A DNA stretch of 37,839 nucleotides, from positions 1 to 37,839 of the forward strand of contig JAENXC010000027.1 in NCBI GenBank assembly GCA_016649715.1, in the 5' to 3' direction. Below are positions 1 to 7,946 of the stretch, piece after piece. Source of the stretch: Flavobacteriaceae bacterium. Lineage in GTDB: Bacteria > Bacteroidota > Bacteroidia > Flavobacteriales > Flavobacteriaceae. How positions within the stretch are numbered: position 1 is the stretch's first letter; every line of letters begins with the position of its first letter. Below the pieces are notes generated by a model. The model was not told the DNA's origin. It saw only the letters and a list, made by a program, of their open reading frames with translations, and did no database searches. The position numbers were made by a program, and so were the translations under genes.

Positions 1-137
1 ACAAAACGAACCGAGACAACTGGCACAAAACGAACCGTTATAGGTCCGGCTAAACAGCTGAAAGTGGCACAAATTGAACCGAAATGCCTGGCACTAACCG
101 ACCGAAATCACTGGCACCATTTGATCCGAGTTATCCA
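1..137. mobile_element. Terminal region of an IS21-family insertion sequence
   Basis: The first 130 bases carry a motif of the form TGGCACAAAACGAACCG several times: a partial copy at 1-13 and variants at 20-37, 64-81, 88-104 and 111-128. Clusters of such transposase-binding repeats near the tips are typical of IS21 elements, and this wording is common in Bacteroidota IS21 ends. Read from the minus strand the tip would start TGGATAACTCGG, matching the TG...CA termini of the family, so I place the edge at about 137. The transposase (istA) and helper (istB) genes would lie to the left, outside the window. The element interrupts the gene to its right. The exact boundary and target duplication are inferred. 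Confidence 0.72.
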
Positions 138-468
138 CTTGTAGCCAATATTCCTTTATTTCTTTATCAAGTGGCCGAGAATGGTACTTCTTCCTTCCTC
201 TGGGGTTGGGTTCAAAGCCGAGTACAATTTTTACATTCTTTAGTTTTTGGTAATCGTTATTTCCGAAAATATCTATTAGATAAGATAGAGAGGTGAAGCC
301 AGTTATTATTGTAAAAAAAGATGAAGAATTTAAATCTTCGAGAACTATAGTTTCAACGCTCCTATTATTTTCTTTTATATTTAATGGAAAATCTCTATTG
401 TGAGGCCAGATTTGTAAAGGCTTGAGTTCTTTATCGAAGTCAAATAGAAGTTGATTGACATCTGGCAT
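138..468 (-). pseudogene. Truncated helicase/PLD-like protein, N-terminal part only
   Basis: This reading frame runs from the ATG at 468 leftward, but only about 110 codons are native. From residue 111 on (VDNSDQMVPV...) the frame reads through the IS21 tip and stops at 94. The native part has a beta-strand/helix pattern (FFTIITGFTSLSYLIDIFG, then VKIVLGFEPNPRGRKK) that resembles the N-terminal phospholipase-D-like module of SNF2-type helicases in defence loci; I make this link from memory of the family and it is tentative. It lies 14 bp after the PD-(D/E)XK gene and is the last gene of the leftward operon. Loss of the rest of the protein could disable the system. Confidence 0.5.
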
Positions 469-482
469 TTTTAAATATTTTA

Positions 483-1514
483 TTAATAAAGGTTGATTTC
501 CTTCTCAATCATCTTAAACTCATCCTTCACAGCATCTCCCATATAAAAATCTAAAAGATCTTTCTTAGTTAGGGTTCCAGTTTGTAAAAACTGAGTCAAA
601 TATTTTTGGTTAAAGTCCATCAACAGCATTGACTTTTCTATCTGCTTTAAGATCTCTCGGTTGGTGTCAATGTTCCGTTCCACCAAAGTTTTAATGGCTT
701 TTATTTCGTGGATGTCTTTTATGATACGGGTAACAAGTACACTTAAAACATCTTTATCCAATTCAACATTTCTGGCATTAAGTGCTATATCGCGTGCCAA
801 CATATAAGCAATAACCAAATTGGTATAATCTCCTTTTTGTGAATCTATAATAGCTATAAACCCAATCTCAGGGATATAACCCACATTCTCGCAAAACTTT
901 AAAATAGAATTATCCACAAATGAAATGTCAAAAACAATCAAGCTTACTTTACTATTCCTATTGGCATCTGCCTCTATCAGCTGGCTCCAAGCCGTATCTG
1001 TTTTTCTGACAAACAAATCCTTGCCCTCAATTGGGCCAAGTTTTACGCTTTTATCAAACTTGCATTCTATGGTTATTTTTAAATCAGGATTGCCATTTAC
1101 CTCACAAATAATATCCCCTGTTTTATTTCGTACCAAAGCACCAGCAGCATTTCCAGTTAACAATGCTCTATCTGTCATCCGCTTACTTTGAAAATACTCA
1201 TTCAAAAACTCGGCAATATCATCTTCTGCTAAGGAACCTTTTATGGTGGATTTATAAAACAACTCCTTCTTCATTTCAAAGATCATTTTCAGGCTTTCCA
1301 ACTCTGTGCCCAACTCATTGGATGTTTTTGAAAGGAAAGATGAAATACGGTCTTCCATCAATGCTAAAACACCGATGTAAATTGCTCTAAGCAGTTTATC
1401 GTCTCTTTCACCTGCAGAAAGATTATTAAAGTAATTGAAAACAATTTGATTCTCCATTTCAAATTCTTTGATTTCAATTCTTTTGAGTTGTTGGTTTATT
1501 TTTATTGTTGCCAT
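483..1514 (-). CDS. PD-(D/E)XK nuclease-like protein of a defence operon
   Basis: This is a 343-residue soluble protein I cannot assign to a named family. The N-terminal 100 residues are helical. The middle holds a pattern fitting a PD-(D/E)XK nuclease core: acidic residues near E98-E102, D133 in a strand-like TGDIICEV, and E150-C-K152 in ITIECKFD, followed by strands SLIVFDISF and IGFIAIID. The C-terminal 90 residues look helical. It starts 2 bp after the stop of the RloC-like ATPase gene and is certainly co-transcribed with it. The pairing suggests an effector or partner nuclease for that ATPase. The fold assignment rests on motif spacing only; a non-catalytic partner with the same fold is possible. 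Confidence 0.55.
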   Translation of the reverse strand: MATIKINQQLKRIEIKEFEMENQIVFNYFNNLSAGERDDKLLRAIYIGVLALMEDRISSFLSKTSNELGTELESLKMIFEMKKELFYKSTIKGSLAEDDIAEFLNEYFQSKRMTDRALLTGNAAGALVRNKTGDIICEVNGNPDLKITIECKFDKSVKLGPIEGKDLFVRKTDTAWSQLIEADANRNSKVSLIVFDISFVDNSILKFCENVGYIPEIGFIAIIDSQKGDYTNLVIAYMLARDIALNARNVELDKDVLSVLVTRIIKDIHEIKAIKTLVERNIDTNREILKQIEKSMLLMDFNQKYLTQFLQTGTLTKKDLLDFYMGDAVKDEFKMIEKEINLY

Positions 1515-1516
1515 CT

Positions 1517-3826
1517 TTAAATATTAATTGCATTTTCCAGAGCTTCAAAATGAAGTTTGTCTTTTTTCTTTATATGTTTAATTAATTCACTACAAGCAAC
1601 TGGAATATCTGCCACATATTCACTTTGTTTGCCAATTCTATCTATGTTGTCTAAATGACTAAAATAATGAAATGGCTTACAAATTCTCTTGGAAATTTCA
1701 GGTGAAAAAATCTTGTCCGCTCTTCTATCTACATTTTGATCACTTGGATATTTAGTTAATGTGTACATTTCCAAAAACCTTCTTAATGTATTTGGTATTA
1801 GAAGTAGCTTGTCTGATTTTAAAGGTTTTTTTAGTTTGTTAAATTCGTAGATTTCTTTAAATAAATAATGATACTCAGACTTGTACTTGTCTAAAATGGC
1901 AGGTAATTCCTTGATTATGGTAGTATTGTCTGTAAAACTCCTTTCAATATAATATTTTGACTCTTTGCTAGGCTTCTCCATTGGTAATTCTCTTAATAAA
2001 TTGAAAAATTCGAAGTTGTGAGTTGAAAAAAATAATTGAAGACATTTCAGTTTCCACTCCCCCCCTGGATTGTCATTGGAAAAGAGCATTTCTTTTAAAA
2101 TCGAGTTTATTTGAAAAATGTGATTCCCATCTAAACTTGAGATCGGGTCGTCAATAAAAACGATATAATCTTTAAAAATACTTTTAGACTCTAACGATTT
2201 TATGGTAACTAAAAAATGTGAAAATGCTATTGCAGTTTTTTCGCCCTCACTCAAATTTGATGCATTCTCACCGCCTCTAAGGAGTAAAAACTTTTTGGAT
2301 CTTGGCTCTAATATTATTTCTATGTCATTTCGATTTAAAAAGCTTTGAATAAAGTATGTGTATCTTAAAGCACCTTCAGCATCACTAACCTTTTTTGATT
2401 CATAAAAGTGAATTTGCTTTTCATAATCACTAACTTGGGTATTTAGTTTCTCAATTTGTTCAATTGCAGAATTGTATTTCTTTTCCTTATCAAGATATTT
2501 TTCTCTCCTTAAAAATGAAGAAATTAAATGGTTTTTGTAGATATTTCGTTCATTTTCAATACGGTGTTTGAAACCCTTTGAAAAATCATTATTGCTTCTA
2601 ATTATATTGTTTAGCTGTTCTATTTTATAAGTTATTAGCGAGAAATCAAATTCCTTTATTTGGTCAATTTTAGCGTGTAAAGATTTGTTCAGCTTTAACT
2701 CTAGTTTTGTTGCAAGAGTTTTTAAGTGCTTTTTGTAGAATGTAAAAATTTTATCAAGTTCTTTTTTTAAACTTAAATATTCATCAATGTATCCCAGATT
2801 TAGGTCATTGCTACTTGAAGGAAAATTAATTTGCTTTAAATTATTTTCTTCATCACTGAGTTCTGTTTTTAGATTGTTAATACCCTCTTTTATAGTTGAG
2901 GCTTCACTATTGAAAAATTCAGTTAAATATTGAAACCTATCGGGTTTAATTTCATTATCACAAAACAGACATTTATCACCTTTTGAATGTAGCTCTTTGC
3001 CCTTTTTTACCCAACTATATATTTCTGAATTACTATCTAATATTTTATCTAATTGATTTTTATCAGGAATTTTCACCAATAAAGCATTTACCGATTTAAT
3101 GATTTTTTCATAGGTAGAGTCGAAATAAACCTCATCGAGAACCTCTTTAGGCTCTTTTGATAAAACTATAGCTTTAAGTTGTGCTAGTTTCTTTTTGTCT
3201 GTTATGATAAATTCAGATAAATTATGTTTTACTTTAGATATAATAGGTTTTAGGTTTGCTTTGGTAAAATCAATTTCGCTTCCAAAATGATCAATTTTAA
3301 TCTCTTTTGCGAAATGAGTAAACTTGCCTGATGTTGCTCTATCATAAATTTCGAAATCATCAAGAGTTTTTAGGTATGGGCTTTTCTTACCTACAATAAC
3401 TTCAGTACCATTTATTAAGTCAATTTTGTTTTTATGCTCTAAAATTTTCTCTGTGTATTTTGCATTATCACCAACTTCAAATAAAATTGTTTTGGACTCA
3501 GAAATTTCATCTTTATGAATACTGAAGTTAAGATTGTCTTTTACATAATCAGAGTTAAAAACAAGAATTTCAAAAGGAAAGTTTTGTAAGGTTGTAGAAT
3601 CAAAATCACCAGCAGATGTATTTACTTTGAAAAAACTCTTGTTATAACTGTCGTGAATTTTTTTATCACGTAATGAACTGAATATTCGAGATACAGTTGT
3701 TTTTCCAGAATAATTCCAACCATAAAATAAGTTCTTATGTTTGAAATTTTTTAATCCTGTAACAGAACTCCAAGAAAAGTTCTTGTACACACCAAAATCC
3801 CTAATATTTTCAATTCTATTTATCAT
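1517..3826 (-). CDS. RloC-like AAA_13 ABC ATPase with zinc hook, candidate anticodon nuclease
   Basis: This 769-residue protein has a split ABC ATPase of the PrrC/RloC (AAA_13) type: P-loop GWNYSGKT at 36-43, signature NLSEGEK at 524-530, Walker B YIVFIDD at 554-560, and an H-loop histidine at 603. Between the two halves is a long coiled-coil region with a CLFC motif (C286, C289), as in the zinc hook of RloC. After the ATPase, R682-x3-E686 and a histidine 34 residues on (H720, or H724) match the order and spacing of the R-E-H anticodon-nuclease triad of PrrC and RloC. The length also fits RloC. RloC is known to cut out the wobble nucleotide of a tRNA in response to DNA damage. Similar RRxLE...H patterns occur across AAA_13 proteins, so the nuclease role is not proven. 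The 5' end overlaps the 73-residue gene by 11 bp. Confidence 0.72.
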   Translation of the reverse strand: MINRIENIRDFGVYKNFSWSSVTGLKNFKHKNLFYGWNYSGKTTVSRIFSSLRDKKIHDSYNKSFFKVNTSAGDFDSTTLQNFPFEILVFNSDYVKDNLNFSIHKDEISESKTILFEVGDNAKYTEKILEHKNKIDLINGTEVIVGKKSPYLKTLDDFEIYDRATSGKFTHFAKEIKIDHFGSEIDFTKANLKPIISKVKHNLSEFIITDKKKLAQLKAIVLSKEPKEVLDEVYFDSTYEKIIKSVNALLVKIPDKNQLDKILDSNSEIYSWVKKGKELHSKGDKCLFCDNEIKPDRFQYLTEFFNSEASTIKEGINNLKTELSDEENNLKQINFPSSSNDLNLGYIDEYLSLKKELDKIFTFYKKHLKTLATKLELKLNKSLHAKIDQIKEFDFSLITYKIEQLNNIIRSNNDFSKGFKHRIENERNIYKNHLISSFLRREKYLDKEKKYNSAIEQIEKLNTQVSDYEKQIHFYESKKVSDAEGALRYTYFIQSFLNRNDIEIILEPRSKKFLLLRGGENASNLSEGEKTAIAFSHFLVTIKSLESKSIFKDYIVFIDDPISSLDGNHIFQINSILKEMLFSNDNPGGEWKLKCLQLFFSTHNFEFFNLLRELPMEKPSKESKYYIERSFTDNTTIIKELPAILDKYKSEYHYLFKEIYEFNKLKKPLKSDKLLLIPNTLRRFLEMYTLTKYPSDQNVDRRADKIFSPEISKRICKPFHYFSHLDNIDRIGKQSEYVADIPVACSELIKHIKKKDKLHFEALENAINI

Positions 3827-4037
3827 AAAGGTTCTTCACATAACGATTAATGTAGCTATTCAATCCACTTCCACACTGTGCAAGTCGTTTCAAATTCTCT
3901 ACGTGATTTTGTCCAGCTTTTCGATAACTATATCTATATGTTCTAGCTATTCCAGAAAATTTCACAATAATATAATCAGAACCTATTTCATAGGCTGAAA
4001 CACCTGAATCACCACCTGAATTTCTATATCTTTCCAT
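3816..4037 (-). CDS. Small KTSC-like protein
   Basis: This 73-residue protein contains YEIGSDYIIVKF, then a YRY triplet (RTYRYSY), then a conserved-looking tail GSGLNSYINRYVKN. Strand-strand-YxY followed by a helical end is the layout of KTSC domains, and the two genes before it carry clear KTSC domains. I have seen single-domain proteins of this type in many bacteria with no known function. It starts 2 bp after the stop of the free KTSC gene and overlaps the ATPase start by 11 bp, so translation is probably coupled. The KTSC link is by pattern, less certain than for its neighbours. Confidence 0.6.
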   Translation of the reverse strand: MERYRNSGGDSGVSAYEIGSDYIIVKFSGIARTYRYSYRKAGQNHVENLKRLAQCGSGLNSYINRYVKNLYDK

Positions 4038-4039
4038 AA

Positions 4040-4294
4040 CTACATTTTTTCATACTCATAGTCATTCCTGATATTTGCCGAAAAATAAACTCCGTGTGAA
4101 TCTGCATTCATCAATTCCTCAAATACATCTTCAGGAACATGAAAATATTGATAAATACCTCCGTGTTTAAACTCTACTTCAAGAATTTCATTTGCTGCAT
4201 CATATCCTATTGATGCCAGATTTGAGGATTCTACTGATTGTCTTTTCATAGTATTACTTGTTTGTGCTATAATTATATTTCTCTTTGATTTCAT
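4040..4294 (-). CDS. KTSC domain protein
   Basis: This 84-residue protein is almost entirely one KTSC domain: ESSNLASIGYD, ILEVEFKHGGIYQYF with the central YxY (YQY), then HVPEDVFEELM and a C-terminal helix. KTSC is named after the C-terminal domain of some lysyl-tRNA synthetases and has been proposed, not shown, to bind RNA. It is clearly a paralogue of the last 65 residues of the upstream 617-residue protein (SSNxAS.GYD, YQYF.VPE and ELM shared in the same order). Its start lies 41 bp inside that gene, so it may have arisen by duplication of the domain and be translationally coupled. Confidence 0.78.
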   Translation of the reverse strand: MKSKRNIIIAQTSNTMKRQSVESSNLASIGYDAANEILEVEFKHGGIYQYFHVPEDVFEELMNADSHGVYFSANIRNDYEYEKM

Positions 4295-6107
4295 TCATAA
4301 AATAAGCTCCTGGAGAAGGGGAACTCATCAACTCCTGATACGTCTTTTCCGGCACATCAAAATACTGATAAACAGCCCCGTGATGAAATTCTATTTCTAA
4401 TACTTTCTTTTCCAAATCATAGCCTACTGAGGCAATATTCGAAGAAACTACTGGAATGCGTTTTGTTTTTCCTGTTTTACCTTTTTCTAAAAATGATAGC
4501 AATTGCTTTCCAAGAGCAGTGCTAAGATATTGCTGGTCTCTACTCGTGGGTGTATTAGGAAGCGTGAGTTGAAGCCAACCTGCATCTATTAATGGCTTGA
4601 GATGGTTTCTAAAATTTTTGGTGTTATTGTATAGCCCAATTTTATTGAAAATTGCCTCTCTTGATTTTGGCTCTATACAATATTGGAGCAACTGTTTGGC
4701 TTTAGGTGTAATGCTGTTTCTAATTGCTTCTTGGTCTCTGTCTCCAATTTTAGAAACAGAGAGCCTAAGATAAGGATTTATATCACTTAAGTTTTTGAAT
4801 TCAAGCGCTTTATATTCGTCTCTTCTCAGTTCCTCTTGCAAGCCTAAGATGGAATTCGTGAGCGGGTGTACGGATAGGATACACAAAAAGTAAGCATTGT
4901 TTTCATCTGTTTCAAAAATGGGCGGAGGTGAACCATTTTCAGCTAAACTTTTGTGAATAATAGGCAATCCCGTTCCTCTGCCTTCTGTAAGTTTTAATTC
5001 CTTTAAAAATCCACCTATTTTACGATTTCTATAATCCCGTGCTACTACTCTTTGCTTATTGAGCATGGCCTGATTAATAGGTGGCAAAGGACCAGGAAAA
5101 CTTAAGATTTCAATTTTATCTTTATGGATTTGAATCTCAACAGGATTTGCTCGTTCATAACTTTTATGATAAACGGCATTAACCACCGCTTCTTCAATGG
5201 CCTGAAAAGGATAGTTGAAGAAGCGTATGGATTCAGCTTGCAAAGCAGATTTTACAACCAATTCTTCAACAATATTTGATTTAAAATACTGCAATACCTC
5301 CCTAATCTGCTGAATAATAGAGCCGTAAAATATTTTTTCGGTATAATCTTTCCCAACTTGATTTTTATGAATCACCAAATCAACAGTCGCTCCGGAAAAA
5401 TATTTTTCAGGTTGTTCATTAAACAGGAGCAAACCAGCATTTGTAGGTCGTAATAGTTCGTCAGAACCTTTAGCTATCATTAGATGTCTGCACAATTCAG
5501 AAAATGGAATTTTTGTACTATCTTCATACAAGGAACTCATCACTTCTTTTAAGTAGTTTTGGATCAAGCGCAAATTCAGATCATCTAAGGTAGTGGTTTG
5601 GTTTATTCGGTCATCAAATGGGATGCGTGCCGTGAGTTCAATGAGTCTTCTTTCATCATCAGAACCATCTTTTACTTTTATCGTTTTTGAGCCGCGTTTG
5701 ATGTACATTGCTCTTTCAGCTTTTTTTTCACTTAAACTAATGGGAGCTTTGTAGGGGCGGTTATCTCCAGCGGGAGCAAAAACAACCAAAATATGCCTCT
5801 CATTCATTAAATAAGGTTGAAAAACAGGAGTATAAGTTGGACTTAATTTATGAGACAGTTCAATAAGTTTTTTCTGGATGGCATCCAATTCTTGAACCTG
5901 TAAACCAATAGGTGGCAACTTGGCTTTCCCATTTTCTTCTTCTATTCCAATAATGACATAACCTCCATCCCAATTGTTGATATCATTAGCGTATGCGCAT
6001 AAAGAGTGAATTATATCCTCAGGATTCCATCCTTTTTTTAACTCAATACGATCCCATTCAACGGTATTGCCGTGCAGTAGTTCTTCTATGTTTATGGGTA
6101 ATGACAT
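4254..6107 (-). CDS. Schlafen/AlbA_2-type ATP-binding protein with C-terminal KTSC domain
   Basis: This is a 617-residue protein. Residues about 15-150 form an AlbA_2 (Schlafen-type) domain: VEWDRIELKKGW, then GGYVIIGIEEENGK. Residues about 300-410 resemble the RecG-like C-terminal ATP-binding module: AIEEAVVNAVYHKSY (the N-box), IEILSFPGPLPP, and GRGTGLPIIHKSL (glycine-rich lid). A winged-helix-like part follows, and residues about 545-610 are a KTSC domain (GAVYQYFDVPE). AlbA_2/HATPase proteins are widespread regulators or nucleic-acid-binding proteins, and several occur in phage defence. It is the first gene of the leftward operon, suggesting a sensor or regulator role; that role is inferred. 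A TATATTTG element 128 bp upstream, inside a repeat, could drive it. Confidence 0.75.
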   Translation of the reverse strand: MSLPINIEELLHGNTVEWDRIELKKGWNPEDIIHSLCAYANDINNWDGGYVIIGIEEENGKAKLPPIGLQVQELDAIQKKLIELSHKLSPTYTPVFQPYLMNERHILVVFAPAGDNRPYKAPISLSEKKAERAMYIKRGSKTIKVKDGSDDERRLIELTARIPFDDRINQTTTLDDLNLRLIQNYLKEVMSSLYEDSTKIPFSELCRHLMIAKGSDELLRPTNAGLLLFNEQPEKYFSGATVDLVIHKNQVGKDYTEKIFYGSIIQQIREVLQYFKSNIVEELVVKSALQAESIRFFNYPFQAIEEAVVNAVYHKSYERANPVEIQIHKDKIEILSFPGPLPPINQAMLNKQRVVARDYRNRKIGGFLKELKLTEGRGTGLPIIHKSLAENGSPPPIFETDENNAYFLCILSVHPLTNSILGLQEELRRDEYKALEFKNLSDINPYLRLSVSKIGDRDQEAIRNSITPKAKQLLQYCIEPKSREAIFNKIGLYNNTKNFRNHLKPLIDAGWLQLTLPNTPTSRDQQYLSTALGKQLLSFLEKGKTGKTKRIPVVSSNIASVGYDLEKKVLEIEFHHGAVYQYFDVPEKTYQELMSSPSPGAYFMNEIKEKYNYSTNK

Positions 6108-6370: not shown

Positions 6371-7147
6371 TTACCTGCTGGCTTTATTATTATGTTCATC
6401 ATATTTTTTTTCAATTTCCGTTTTTGTTCTATAATCTAATGGAATCGGTAAATATGTTGGGTATTTGTAAAGTCCAATGTCAAATGAGTGAGTTCTCTCG
6501 TCAGTGTAATTTTTCCAACCACTAATTTCAGTCAGATGATTAATTTCAGTACCATTGTCAATATTTAAGACATAACCAAAAGGTGGAAAAGTCAATTCGC
6601 AAACAATTCCGTGAGTGTTGGTTGCAGTCCAACTCAAATTTCTAATCTGTCCCTCATTATTCAAATAATGATATATTTTGTATTTGTCCGAAAGAGTTTT
6701 TAATTCAGGGTTTTTTACAAAATCAAGTAGTTCATTATATTCTTCTGTAAACCAAGGTTCATTCATAGCGATAAACATTGATACTATTTGTTTTAAAATT
6801 CTAAAAGGATTTTGATTCATTGCTGTAAACTGAACATACTTAAAATCAAATTTCAAGTTTAAATCCATTCCGATATTTGCCCATTTTGAAAATGAACGAA
6901 CATAATGTTTATTTAAAAATCCATTACAAGTTTCGCACAAAGTAAAATATCCAATTCCGCCTTGATTAACATTTCCTTTTGGCTTGTGCTCAATGAAATT
7001 CGGGCTTTTTGCAAACTCATCAAATGGAATAGAATAGTAGCGAGTATTTTTATTGAAAGCAACTCTTGGTGGAATATGTTCAAAAGTCAGTTTTTGTTCT
7101 TTCTTACAAATTCGGCAAATACCAATTTCTGTTTTCTTTCTACTCAT
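6371..7147 (-). CDS. HNH-type nuclease-like protein with zinc-binding cysteines
   Basis: This is a 258-residue protein. The N-terminus has CRICKKEQKLTFEHIPPR and then LCETCNGFLNKHY: two CxxC pairs around an EHIPP motif, the signature of a diverged HNH/endonuclease-VII-like zinc fold. The remaining 170 residues have no motif I recognise. It is a single leftward gene lying between two direct copies of a 53-bp repeat, and short inverted words (GTTACCTGC) occur at both ends of the gene, so it looks like a separately moved cassette. A stand-alone HNH gene in a defence island is probably a nuclease, but substrate and partner are unknown. Confidence 0.62.
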   Translation of the reverse strand: MSRKKTEIGICRICKKEQKLTFEHIPPRVAFNKNTRYYSIPFDEFAKSPNFIEHKPKGNVNQGGIGYFTLCETCNGFLNKHYVRSFSKWANIGMDLNLKFDFKYVQFTAMNQNPFRILKQIVSMFIAMNEPWFTEEYNELLDFVKNPELKTLSDKYKIYHYLNNEGQIRNLSWTATNTHGIVCELTFPPFGYVLNIDNGTEINHLTEISGWKNYTDERTHSFDIGLYKYPTYLPIPLDYRTKTEIEKKYDEHNNKASR

Positions 7148-7466: not shown

Positions 7467-7946
7467 TCACCGCCTCTTATAAAAATTAACCCTCCCTTTC
7501 TTACTAACCTTCAACTTGCCCTCTCCTACTTTTCTATTTAAGATAACAGATACATTGGAAGTTTTAGTTTTGATTTCATAAACCGCTGAAAGTTCATTTA
7601 CTACATCATTTGCTGAACGTTCTGTTTTAAGGAAGTCGGTTTCTATAAGATGATCTATTCTTGGGGTGAGTCGGCTTTTCTCTTTTCTTGGTTCAGAAAG
7701 TTCAAAAAGAGGCTTGAGTATAATCTTAATATCGACCATATCTTTTGGATGCATGTCAATAGCAAGGCACACAGCAAAAAAATTGGAAAGATAAGTTTCT
7801 TTGCCATTTTCAATATTACGAATGGTAGCAGCCGTTAGACCAGTCATCTCGGCAACATCTTCTGGCTGCAGATCTTGACTTATGCGGTGTTCTTCAATTC
7901 TTTTACCTATGGTAGCTAGGAGAGTTTTAAGAGTATCATCTTCCAT
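7467..7946 (-). CDS. XRE-family transcriptional regulator
   Basis: This is a 159-residue protein. Residues about 13-72 are a Cro/C1-type helix-turn-helix (IGKRIEEHRISQ...PEDVAEMTGLTAATIRNIENGKE). The C-terminal half (LIETDFLKTERSANDVVNELS...SVILNRKVGEGKLKVSKKGRVNFYKR) looks like a second, winged-helix-like domain with a basic end. It is divergent from the promoter of a candidate small RNA, and a 10-bp inverted repeat lies between them, 23 bp before its start codon, so autoregulation and control of the RNA are likely. Whether it also controls the defence operon cannot be seen. Confidence 0.75.
   Translation of the reverse strand: MEDDTLKTLLATIGKRIEEHRISQDLQPEDVAEMTGLTAATIRNIENGKETYLSNFFAVCLAIDMHPKDMVDIKIILKPLFELSEPRKEKSRLTPRIDHLIETDFLKTERSANDVVNELSAVYEIKTKTSNVSVILNRKVGEGKLKVSKKGRVNFYKRR

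What the first reader, a model, noticed from the sequence alone, without database searches (positions are those of the whole stretch)
138..6107. Candidate new defence operon: AlbA_2/KTSC protein, two KTSC-type proteins, RloC-like ATPase and PD-(D/E)XK-like protein
Six genes lie in one tight leftward unit with overlaps of 41 and 11 bp and gaps of 2, 2 and 14 bp. The 769-residue ATPase has the layout of RloC: split ABC ATPase, CxxC hook and a spaced R-E-H triad of an anticodon nuclease. KTSC is named after lysyl-tRNA synthetase C-termini and has been proposed to bind RNA. Three KTSC or KTSC-like domains next to a candidate tRNA nuclease suggest that the system senses or guards tRNA. RloC is usually described beside type I restriction genes; I do not recognise this gene set as a named system. 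The link between KTSC and tRNA is inference.
Basis: partly seen in the sequence, partly recalled or inferred. Interest (0 to 1): 0.85.

Follow-up and report, generated by a model that had tools for sequence, protein, structure and literature searches.

The report
Plug-in nuclease beside RloC-like ATPase
A bacterial gene cluster pairs an RloC-like tRNA-cutting-type ATPase with a strongly conserved DNA-cutting-type protein, and that same protein turns up directly behind several unrelated antiviral-type ATPases in other bacteria, so it may be a shared plug-in weapon against phages.

Summary
In detail: six leftward ORFs, tightly packed. The 769-aa ATPase meets the sequence criteria of RloC (CxxC and R-x3-E-x37-H invariant in 30 of 30 aligned sequences). 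KTSC is confirmed in two proteins by Pfam; the 73-aa protein fails Pfam, but the first four rows of its structure comparison are KTSC entries.

The six genes are not a conserved unit. The core is [KTSC, KTSC-fold or WYL-like small protein]-ATPase-PD-(D/E)XK protein.

The 343-aa PD-(D/E)XK protein is 56-95% identical across 17 full-length copies, with six motif positions checked and all invariant. In all 17 it lies directly behind a defence-type ATPase unit: RloC-like/PDC-S06 (7 loci), SIR2-HerA-KTSC (7), LmuB-like, OLD-like, PDC-S46 (1 each). Its tree mixes partners. Betaproteobacterial RloC-like ATPases carry an unrelated Mrr-nSTAND3 gene at the same place, once fused.

Best reading: an exchangeable DNase effector, here giving an RloC-like ATPase a second arm; KTSC-fold proteins as adaptors. 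KTSC as tRNA sensor is not supported. No activity was tested. New variant of a known kind.

The parts
483..1514 (-). 343-aa PD-(D/E)XK-type protein; putative site D134-x15-E150-C-K152, plus E97 and Q178; the exchangeable core component
   Evidence: PDDEXK_15 2.3e-5, below cut-off; nearest to Bax1, McrC and Can2-type chains over residues 91-249, low-confidence model; E97, D134, E150, K152, Q178, N185 invariant in 17 of 17
1517..3826 (-). 769-aa RloC-like ATPase (AAA_13; PADLOC candidate PDC-S06): Walker A about 36-44, C286xxC289, LSEGE 525-529, Walker B about 555-566, T602-H603, R682-x3-E686-x37-H724
   Evidence: (30 sequences)
3816..4037 (-). 73-aa KTSC-fold protein (no PF13619 match); overlaps the ATPase start by 11 bp, as also in L002 and L003 (8 bp from the matched ATPase start)
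   Evidence: no Pfam KTSC; pLDDT 82.6; first four rows are KTSC entries
4040..4294 (-). 84-aa KTSC protein; likely true start at 4249
   Evidence: 1.2e-26; 7x8c, 8wiv, 4rgi
4254..6107 (-). 617-aa SLFN_AlbA_2 + HATPase_c_4 + Fic-like_C + C-terminal KTSC protein; neighbour, probably a separate acquisition
   Evidence: (six plasmid records match, none beyond residue 538, so without the KTSC tail)
94..468 (-). 124-aa protein of unknown family beside the contig end; not seen with the core elsewhere, probably not part of the system
   Evidence: no family; 2 of 99 genomes: its own, and one at E 8.4e-4; no plasmid record

Best explanation
The core is a defence module of a KTSC-fold small protein (or two), an RloC-like ATPase and a PD-(D/E)XK nuclease-like effector. 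Likely working: (1) the Rad50-like ATPase head and zinc hook sense DNA ends or a phage-made DNA state (inferred from RloC biology); (2) the C-terminal HEPN-type site, intact here, cuts tRNA anticodon loops and stops translation (inferred from the intact R-E-H triad); (3) the PD-(D/E)XK protein, docked on the ATPase possibly through a KTSC-fold adaptor, is licensed by the same ATPase to cut DNA (inferred from gene order, intact site and recurrence). The nuclease-like protein is an exchangeable effector that other bacteria couple to other ATPase sensors: SIR2-HerA-KTSC, LmuB-like, OLD-like and PDC-S46. Shown: the genes, motifs, conserved order, the five partner types and partner mixing on the tree. 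Not shown: any activity, any protein contact, any phage defence.
For: 17 of 17 full-length copies lie directly behind an ATPase gene, or behind the KTSC gene that follows HerA; computed spacing is -4 to 6 bp in 16, and 1 bp in L042 as read from its sequence. Six motif positions checked, all invariant in 17 of 17; 108 of 343 positions invariant. Partner types: PDC-S06 by PADLOC for window, L004, L019, L064 and by tblastn for L002, L003, L056; SIR2 and HerA by PADLOC and Pfam for L040 (Pfam SIR2 also for L046), by tblastn from L040 for the others, and by record annotation for L045; LmuB 3.7e-16, Old 5.9e-57, PDC-S46 3e-247. Tree: L040 (HerA) and L054 (OLD) are sisters at 99/98; well-supported branches force at least 2 changes of the HerA label. 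Independent pairing: an Mrr_cat-nSTAND3 gene 4 bp behind RloC-like ATPases in L005, L009, L011, L015, L020, fused in L014 (Pfam on L009, L011 and L014, the rest by tblastn). Defence surroundings: type I R-M genes on both sides in L056, AbiEi/AbiEii beside L054, Wadjet-like genes beside L003 and L064 (my reading of the sequences, not tested). RloC criteria met. KTSC fused to HerA in the solved SIR2/HerA complex.
Confidence: 0.55

Rival explanations
1. The PD-(D/E)XK protein is a guard: a regulator, immunity or DNA-repair factor that restrains the ATPase's toxic arm, rather than a weapon.
For: In L004, L019 and L064 the ATPase is damaged but the PD-(D/E)XK gene is full length, as expected if the toxic partner is lost first and the guard is harmless. 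Its slow divergence beside fast-diverging ATPases (74% against 46% for window-L003; 64% against 29% for window-L056) is unusual for a weapon.
Against: Intact D-ExK site in 17 of 17; recurrence with SIR2-HerA, whose toxic arm is unlike that of RloC; a different nuclease-type gene sits at the same place in betaproteobacteria.
Confidence: 0.2
2. Ordinary RloC/PDC-S06 beside an unrelated passenger gene of a defence island; the adjacency carries no shared function.
For: 29 of the 33 RloC-like loci have no match to this gene (some loci are cut); the 14 viewed have varied neighbours; islands mix genes freely.
Against: Spacing of -4 to 6 bp with five ATPase types; high conservation; the HerA version is found in both Bacteroidota and Pseudomonadota.
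Confidence: 0.15
3. One reading: KTSC domains sense or guard tRNA for the RloC-like anticodon nuclease.
For: One review calls KTSC a lysyl-tRNA synthetase RNA-binding domain (PMC7824862, passage read); RloC acts on tRNA.
Against: KTSC is a regular part of SIR2-HerA operons: 5 of 5 plasmid operons opened, and fused to HerA in 8wiv/8wld. Another paper of the same group calls it DNA-binding (PMC9503650). Of the 33 RloC-like loci only L002 has a match to the 84-aa KTSC protein.
Confidence: 0.08

Closest known systems
RloC anticodon nuclease (PMC2610378, passages read)
   Same: Split ABC ATPase, CxxC hook, Arg-x3-Glu-x36-52-His with Ser before His (x37 here); same AAA_13 family
   Different: Here it has a dedicated downstream PD-(D/E)XK protein and KTSC-fold proteins upstream. 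tRNA cleavage not tested
SIR2-HerA defence (PDB 8wld/8wiv; PADLOC SIR2 and HerA)
   Same: Seven loci carry the same PD-(D/E)XK protein and a KTSC protein
   Different: The window has neither SIR2 nor HerA; the five plasmid SIR2-HerA operons opened have KTSC and no PD-(D/E)XK gene (the only plasmid match is Paracoccus pPZ02)
HerA-KTSC-endoDNase variants (one sentence, unpublished observation, PMC9503650, passage read)
   Same: A DNase and a KTSC gene next to a HerA-like ATPase
   Different: That text has the DNase in place of the sirtuin; here both are present in 7 of 7, and the DNase-like gene also pairs with ABC-type ATPases
Nuclease-protease pairs taken up by AVAST, Lamassu, Hachiman and DRT (PMC12799240, abstract and start of introduction read)
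   Same: One nuclease module shared by unrelated antiviral systems
   Different: That nuclease is of the metallo-beta-lactamase superfamily with a trypsin-like protease; here a PD-(D/E)XK-type protein with KTSC- or WYL-like small proteins, and I saw no protease gene
DUF4297/Cap4-type nucleases of HerA-DUF4297, CBASS, Avs (PMC11291478, passages read)
   Same: Nuclease effectors driven by an ATPase or sensor
   Different: No Pfam match (window, L045, L056, L070) or PADLOC match (window, L045) to those families for the copies scanned; here one full-length protein of 56-95% identity is shared

Membership tests
RloC | ABC-type ATPase motifs (Walker A, signature, Walker B) | tested here: met
   N32, S40-K42, G528-E529, D559-P561, D566, T602-H603 invariant in 30 of 30; AAA_13 3.1e-95
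RloC | CxxC zinc-hook motif inside the ATPase domain | tested here: met
   C286 and C289 invariant, 30 of 30
RloC | Arg-x3-Glu-x36-52-His, Ser often before His | tested here: met
   R682-x3-E686-x37-H724, with S723; R, E and H invariant 30 of 30 (rule)
RloC | tRNA anticodon cleavage with wobble-nucleotide excision | not testable with these tools
   Needs expression and tRNA analysis
KTSC (PF13619) | Pfam score above gathering cut-off: 84-aa protein and C-terminus of the 617-aa protein | tested here: met
   92.6 and 88 bits against 25
KTSC (PF13619) | Same for the 73-aa protein | tested here: not met
PD-(D/E)XK superfamily | D-xn-(D/E)-x-K signature, conserved | tested here: met
   D134, E150, K152 invariant in 17 of 17
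PD-(D/E)XK superfamily | PD-(D/E)XK core fold | tested here: inconclusive
SIR2-HerA system | SIR2 gene and HerA gene in the operon | tested here: not met
   The window operon has neither
Schlafen / AlbA_2 | Pfam SLFN_AlbA_2 above cut-off in the 617-aa protein | tested here: met
   52.5 bits against 25.3
Schlafen / AlbA_2 | tRNA nuclease site and activity | not tested
   Not examined; plasmid relatives are annotated RNA-binding, ATP-binding or helix-turn-helix domain proteins, or not at all

The most novel reading that the evidence does not exclude
A single, strongly conserved PD-(D/E)XK protein acts as a general plug-in DNase that at least five different ATPase sensors (RloC-like, SIR2-HerA, Lamassu-like, OLD-like, PDC-S46) drive through one common docking surface, with KTSC-fold or WYL-like small proteins as interchangeable adaptors. 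Its slow divergence would then reflect a fixed partner or target common to all these hosts. The RloC-like version would be a two-armed system that cuts tRNA and DNA from one trigger.
Probability: 0.3. Interest if true: 0.82.

Novelty: new variant of a known kind. Interest (0 to 1): 0.62.

Why it matters
It gives a concrete handle on how antiviral systems swap parts: the same protein behind five ATPase types that probably sense infection differently. If it is a DNase, it would show that RloC-type anticodon nucleases can have a DNA-cutting arm, which bears on what RloC senses and why it carries a Rad50-like head. It also ties the poorly understood KTSC domain to defence ATPases (HerA and RloC-like) rather than to tRNA, which can be tested directly.

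Tried and rejected
KTSC as tRNA sensor: dropped as main reading (see rivals). The 124-aa gene as part of the system: rejected. The 617-aa AlbA_2 gene as core: rejected, because L002, L003, L004 and L019 show no match to its AlbA_2 part (L064, on a 4.3-kb contig, shows none either); but AlbA_2 genes lie directly behind the PD-(D/E)XK gene in L040 and L066, so a loose link remains.

Solved relatives by sequence: none for the ATPase or for the PD-(D/E)XK profile. Foldseek for the nuclease and 73-aa models: no hit under E 0.001; only the VIA second look gave an order worth reading. The WYL-like protein has no Pfam, PHROG, NCBIfam or clear PDB match; the name comes from the annotation of two plasmid relatives. 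Twelve genomes with an RloC-like ATPase had no PD-(D/E)XK match (which warned that it had no positive control). The IMG/VR scans work from short peptide patterns and can miss distant copies.

Rows dropped before counts: G263 and G508 (only the last 30 or so residues match) and G723/L067 (the gene is in two pieces in different frames; no ATPase gene stands in front of it on its strand, though an ATPase-like gene lies on the other strand). They are not among the 17. Of the 33 loci, five (L004, L010, L018, L019, L021) were left out of the ATPase alignment: L004, L018 and L019 because broken or partial, L010 and L021 without need. Tallies share genomes (G224, G263, G482) and must not be added; each count the genome of a query row.

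Literature: searches showed, in the listings and abstracts that I saw, no paper on this nuclease-like protein with RloC-like ATPases; the library holds open-licence papers only and I did not read the listed papers through, so this does not show that none exists.
Full report
WHAT IS THERE. The window starts at the first base of contig C38 of the genome. Searches confirm six minus-strand ORFs at 94-6107. In the direction of transcription: 617 aa (SLFN_AlbA_2, HATPase_c_4, Fic-like_C, C-terminal KTSC), 84 aa (KTSC), 73 aa, 769 aa (AAA_13), 343 aa (PDDEXK_15 below cut-off), 124 aa (no family). PADLOC knows the ATPase as the candidate PDC-S06 (2.1e-128), with a weaker partial match to PrrC (5.7e-11); the AlbA_2 protein gives partial hits to three Argonaute-system models (7e-20 to 5e-14); the other four give none. 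NCBIfam has no match above a cut-off for the six. An HNH-type gene (6371-7147) and an HTH gene (7467-7946) lie upstream on the same strand.

THE ATPASE IS RLOC-LIKE. Reference criteria from the RloC paper (PMC2610378, passages read): ABC motifs, a CxxC zinc hook, and Arg-x3-Glu-x36-52-His with Ser often before His; changing any of the three triad residues abolished activity there. In an alignment of 30 sequences (window, L056 and 28 of the 33 loci) C286, C289, R682, E686 and H724 are each invariant, 30 of 30, and the spacing in the window is R-x3-E-x37-H with S723. The HEPN survey (PMC3710099, passages read) places this domain with HEPN RNases and reports a subset of RloC-like genes with R-M genes. 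Sequence membership is met; tRNA cleavage is not testable here.

WHICH GENES TRAVEL TOGETHER. Of the 33 loci, four carry the PD-(D/E)XK gene behind the ATPase: L002, L003, L004, L019; 29 show no match. L002 has KTSC, 73-aa gene, ATPase, PDDEXK; L003 has 73-aa gene, ATPase, PDDEXK; L019 has a WYL-like gene, the 73-aa gene, an ATPase with a large internal deletion, and PDDEXK; L004 keeps only the ATPase C-terminus and PDDEXK. The AlbA_2 part of the 617-aa protein and the 124-aa protein match none of the four. The core is therefore [small protein]-ATPase-PDDEXK. For window-L003 the ATPase is 46% identical and the PD-(D/E)XK protein 74%; for window-L056 29% and 64%.

THE SAME PROTEIN BEHIND OTHER ATPASES. 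Searches for the PD-(D/E)XK protein: 3 of 296 and 3 of 395 genomes of the window's phylum (each tally counts a short fragment, and the window's own genome), 7 of 164 genomes of the order of G224 (two are fragments, two were known), 5 of 344 of the order of G612 (one is L002's genome, one is broken), 2 of 398 of the phylum of G617, the Polaromonas locus, 1 plasmid of 72,556, 1 viral contig, no phage record of 50,697. Seventeen full-length copies could be placed. Partners: RloC-like AAA_13 in window, L002, L003, L004, L019, L064, L056; SIR2-HerA-KTSC in L040, L042, L045 (Paracoccus zhejiangensis plasmid pPZ02), L046, L066, L070, L071; a LmuB-like ATPase in L055 (PADLOC 3.7e-16); an OLD-like AAA_15-TOPRIM protein, cut by the contig end, in L054 (5.9e-57); PDC-S46 in L065 (3e-247). 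SIR2 and HerA were typed by family models only for L040 (SIR2 also L046); in the other loci they are tblastn matches to L040 or record annotation. Spacing to the gene in front is -4 to 6 bp in the 16 loci computed from ORF or match ends, and 1 bp in L042. E97, D134, E150, K152, Q178 and N185 are invariant in 17 of 17; 108 of 343 positions are invariant; pairwise identity runs from 56 to 95%.

PARTNER EXCHANGE. In a maximum-likelihood tree of the 17, L040 (HerA) and L054 (OLD) are sisters (99/98; 83% identical), while the HerA-linked rows L042, L045, L070 and L071 form a separate clade (100/100); the well-supported branches force at least two changes of the HerA label. For the AAA_13 label they force only one, so a single origin of that pairing is not excluded, and labels are somewhat clustered (15 of 200 shuffles as low); six of the 14 inner branches are poorly supported. 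The LmuB-like and OLD-like cases each rest on one contig, of 9.6 and 5.2 kb, in genomes of 77% completeness; L065 is on a 4.3-Mb contig.

A SECOND, INDEPENDENT PAIRING. In betaproteobacterial relatives the RloC-like ATPase is followed 4 bp later by an unrelated Mrr_cat-nSTAND3 gene: L005, L009, L011, L015, L020; in L014 the two are one open frame of 1479 codons; L006 and L012 match only its first 35 and 30 residues (Pfam was run on L009, L011 and L014, the rest are tblastn matches). A nuclease-type gene directly behind an RloC-like ATPase is thus a repeated pattern. Against it, other relatives have different neighbours or none (14 loci viewed).

SMALL PROTEINS SWAP TOO. A WYL-like 95-103-aa protein precedes the unit in L019, L055, L056 and L065, with three ATPase types; in L065 the 73-aa gene after it is interrupted. 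On plasmids, the WYL relative is beside an AAA ATPase in 2 of 2 loci opened; the 73-aa relative is in or beside SbcC/D-like genes in 2 of 3 and has no clear ATPase operon in the third. This fits small adaptors or sensors of ATPase systems, weakly.

MECHANISM AND LIMITS. Most likely the ATPase senses a DNA state, stops translation through its HEPN-type site and licenses the PD-(D/E)XK protein to cut DNA. The sensing and tRNA steps are carried over from RloC; the DNA-cutting step is inferred from motif, order and recurrence. The guard reading is a serious rival because three of seven AAA_13 loci have a damaged ATPase and an intact PD-(D/E)XK gene.

COMPARISON. PMC9503650 has one sentence on HerA-KTSC-endoDNase sets in place of the sirtuin (unpublished observation); here sirtuin and DNase-like gene are together in 7 of 7. 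Sharing of one nuclease module by unrelated systems is known for a metallo-beta-lactamase nuclease with a protease (PMC12799240, abstract and start of introduction). This is the same kind of evolution with a different protein and different partners, hence a new variant of a known kind. The literature searches and their limits are listed under Tried and rejected.

CHANGES ON CHECKING. On holding the report against the calls I mended several counts (29 of 33 loci without the gene, 4 bp before the Mrr gene, six motif positions) and wordings; none of these called for a change of the odds.

Noticed in passing
L077 (Pseudomonas phage 201phi2-1, gp455, locus 2797-5103); phage hits: The 73-aa KTSC-fold protein has relatives inside large proteins of jumbo Pseudomonas phages (64 phage records matched, 62 of Pseudomonas), several annotated as virion structural proteins; gp455 was identified in virions by mass spectrometry according to its record.
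   Followed up: partly
L072-L076: The five plasmid SIR2-HerA operons opened have a separate KTSC gene right after HerA; KTSC could be a third component of this HerA type.
   Followed up: partly
L014:8001-12437: RloC-like ATPase and Mrr_cat-nSTAND3 protein in one open frame of 1479 codons; the ATPase part ends soon after the His of its triad.
   Followed up: partly
L056: The WYL-like-ATPase-PDDEXK unit lies between a type I restriction subunit C-terminus (EcoEI_R_C) and an HsdM gene.
   Followed up: no
L004, L019, L064: ATPase truncated, internally deleted or interrupted while the PD-(D/E)XK gene stays full length.
   Followed up: partly
window:6371-7147 and 7467-7946: HNH-type gene (HNH_5 below cut-off) and HTH gene upstream on the same strand; not tested for a link to the operon.
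   Followed up: no
L078, L080: Two Arcobacteraceae plasmids hold an operon with SbcC- or SbcD-like genes in which the 73-aa relative or a WYL protein sits near DUF2779 and unknown genes; possibly another defence set.
   Followed up: no
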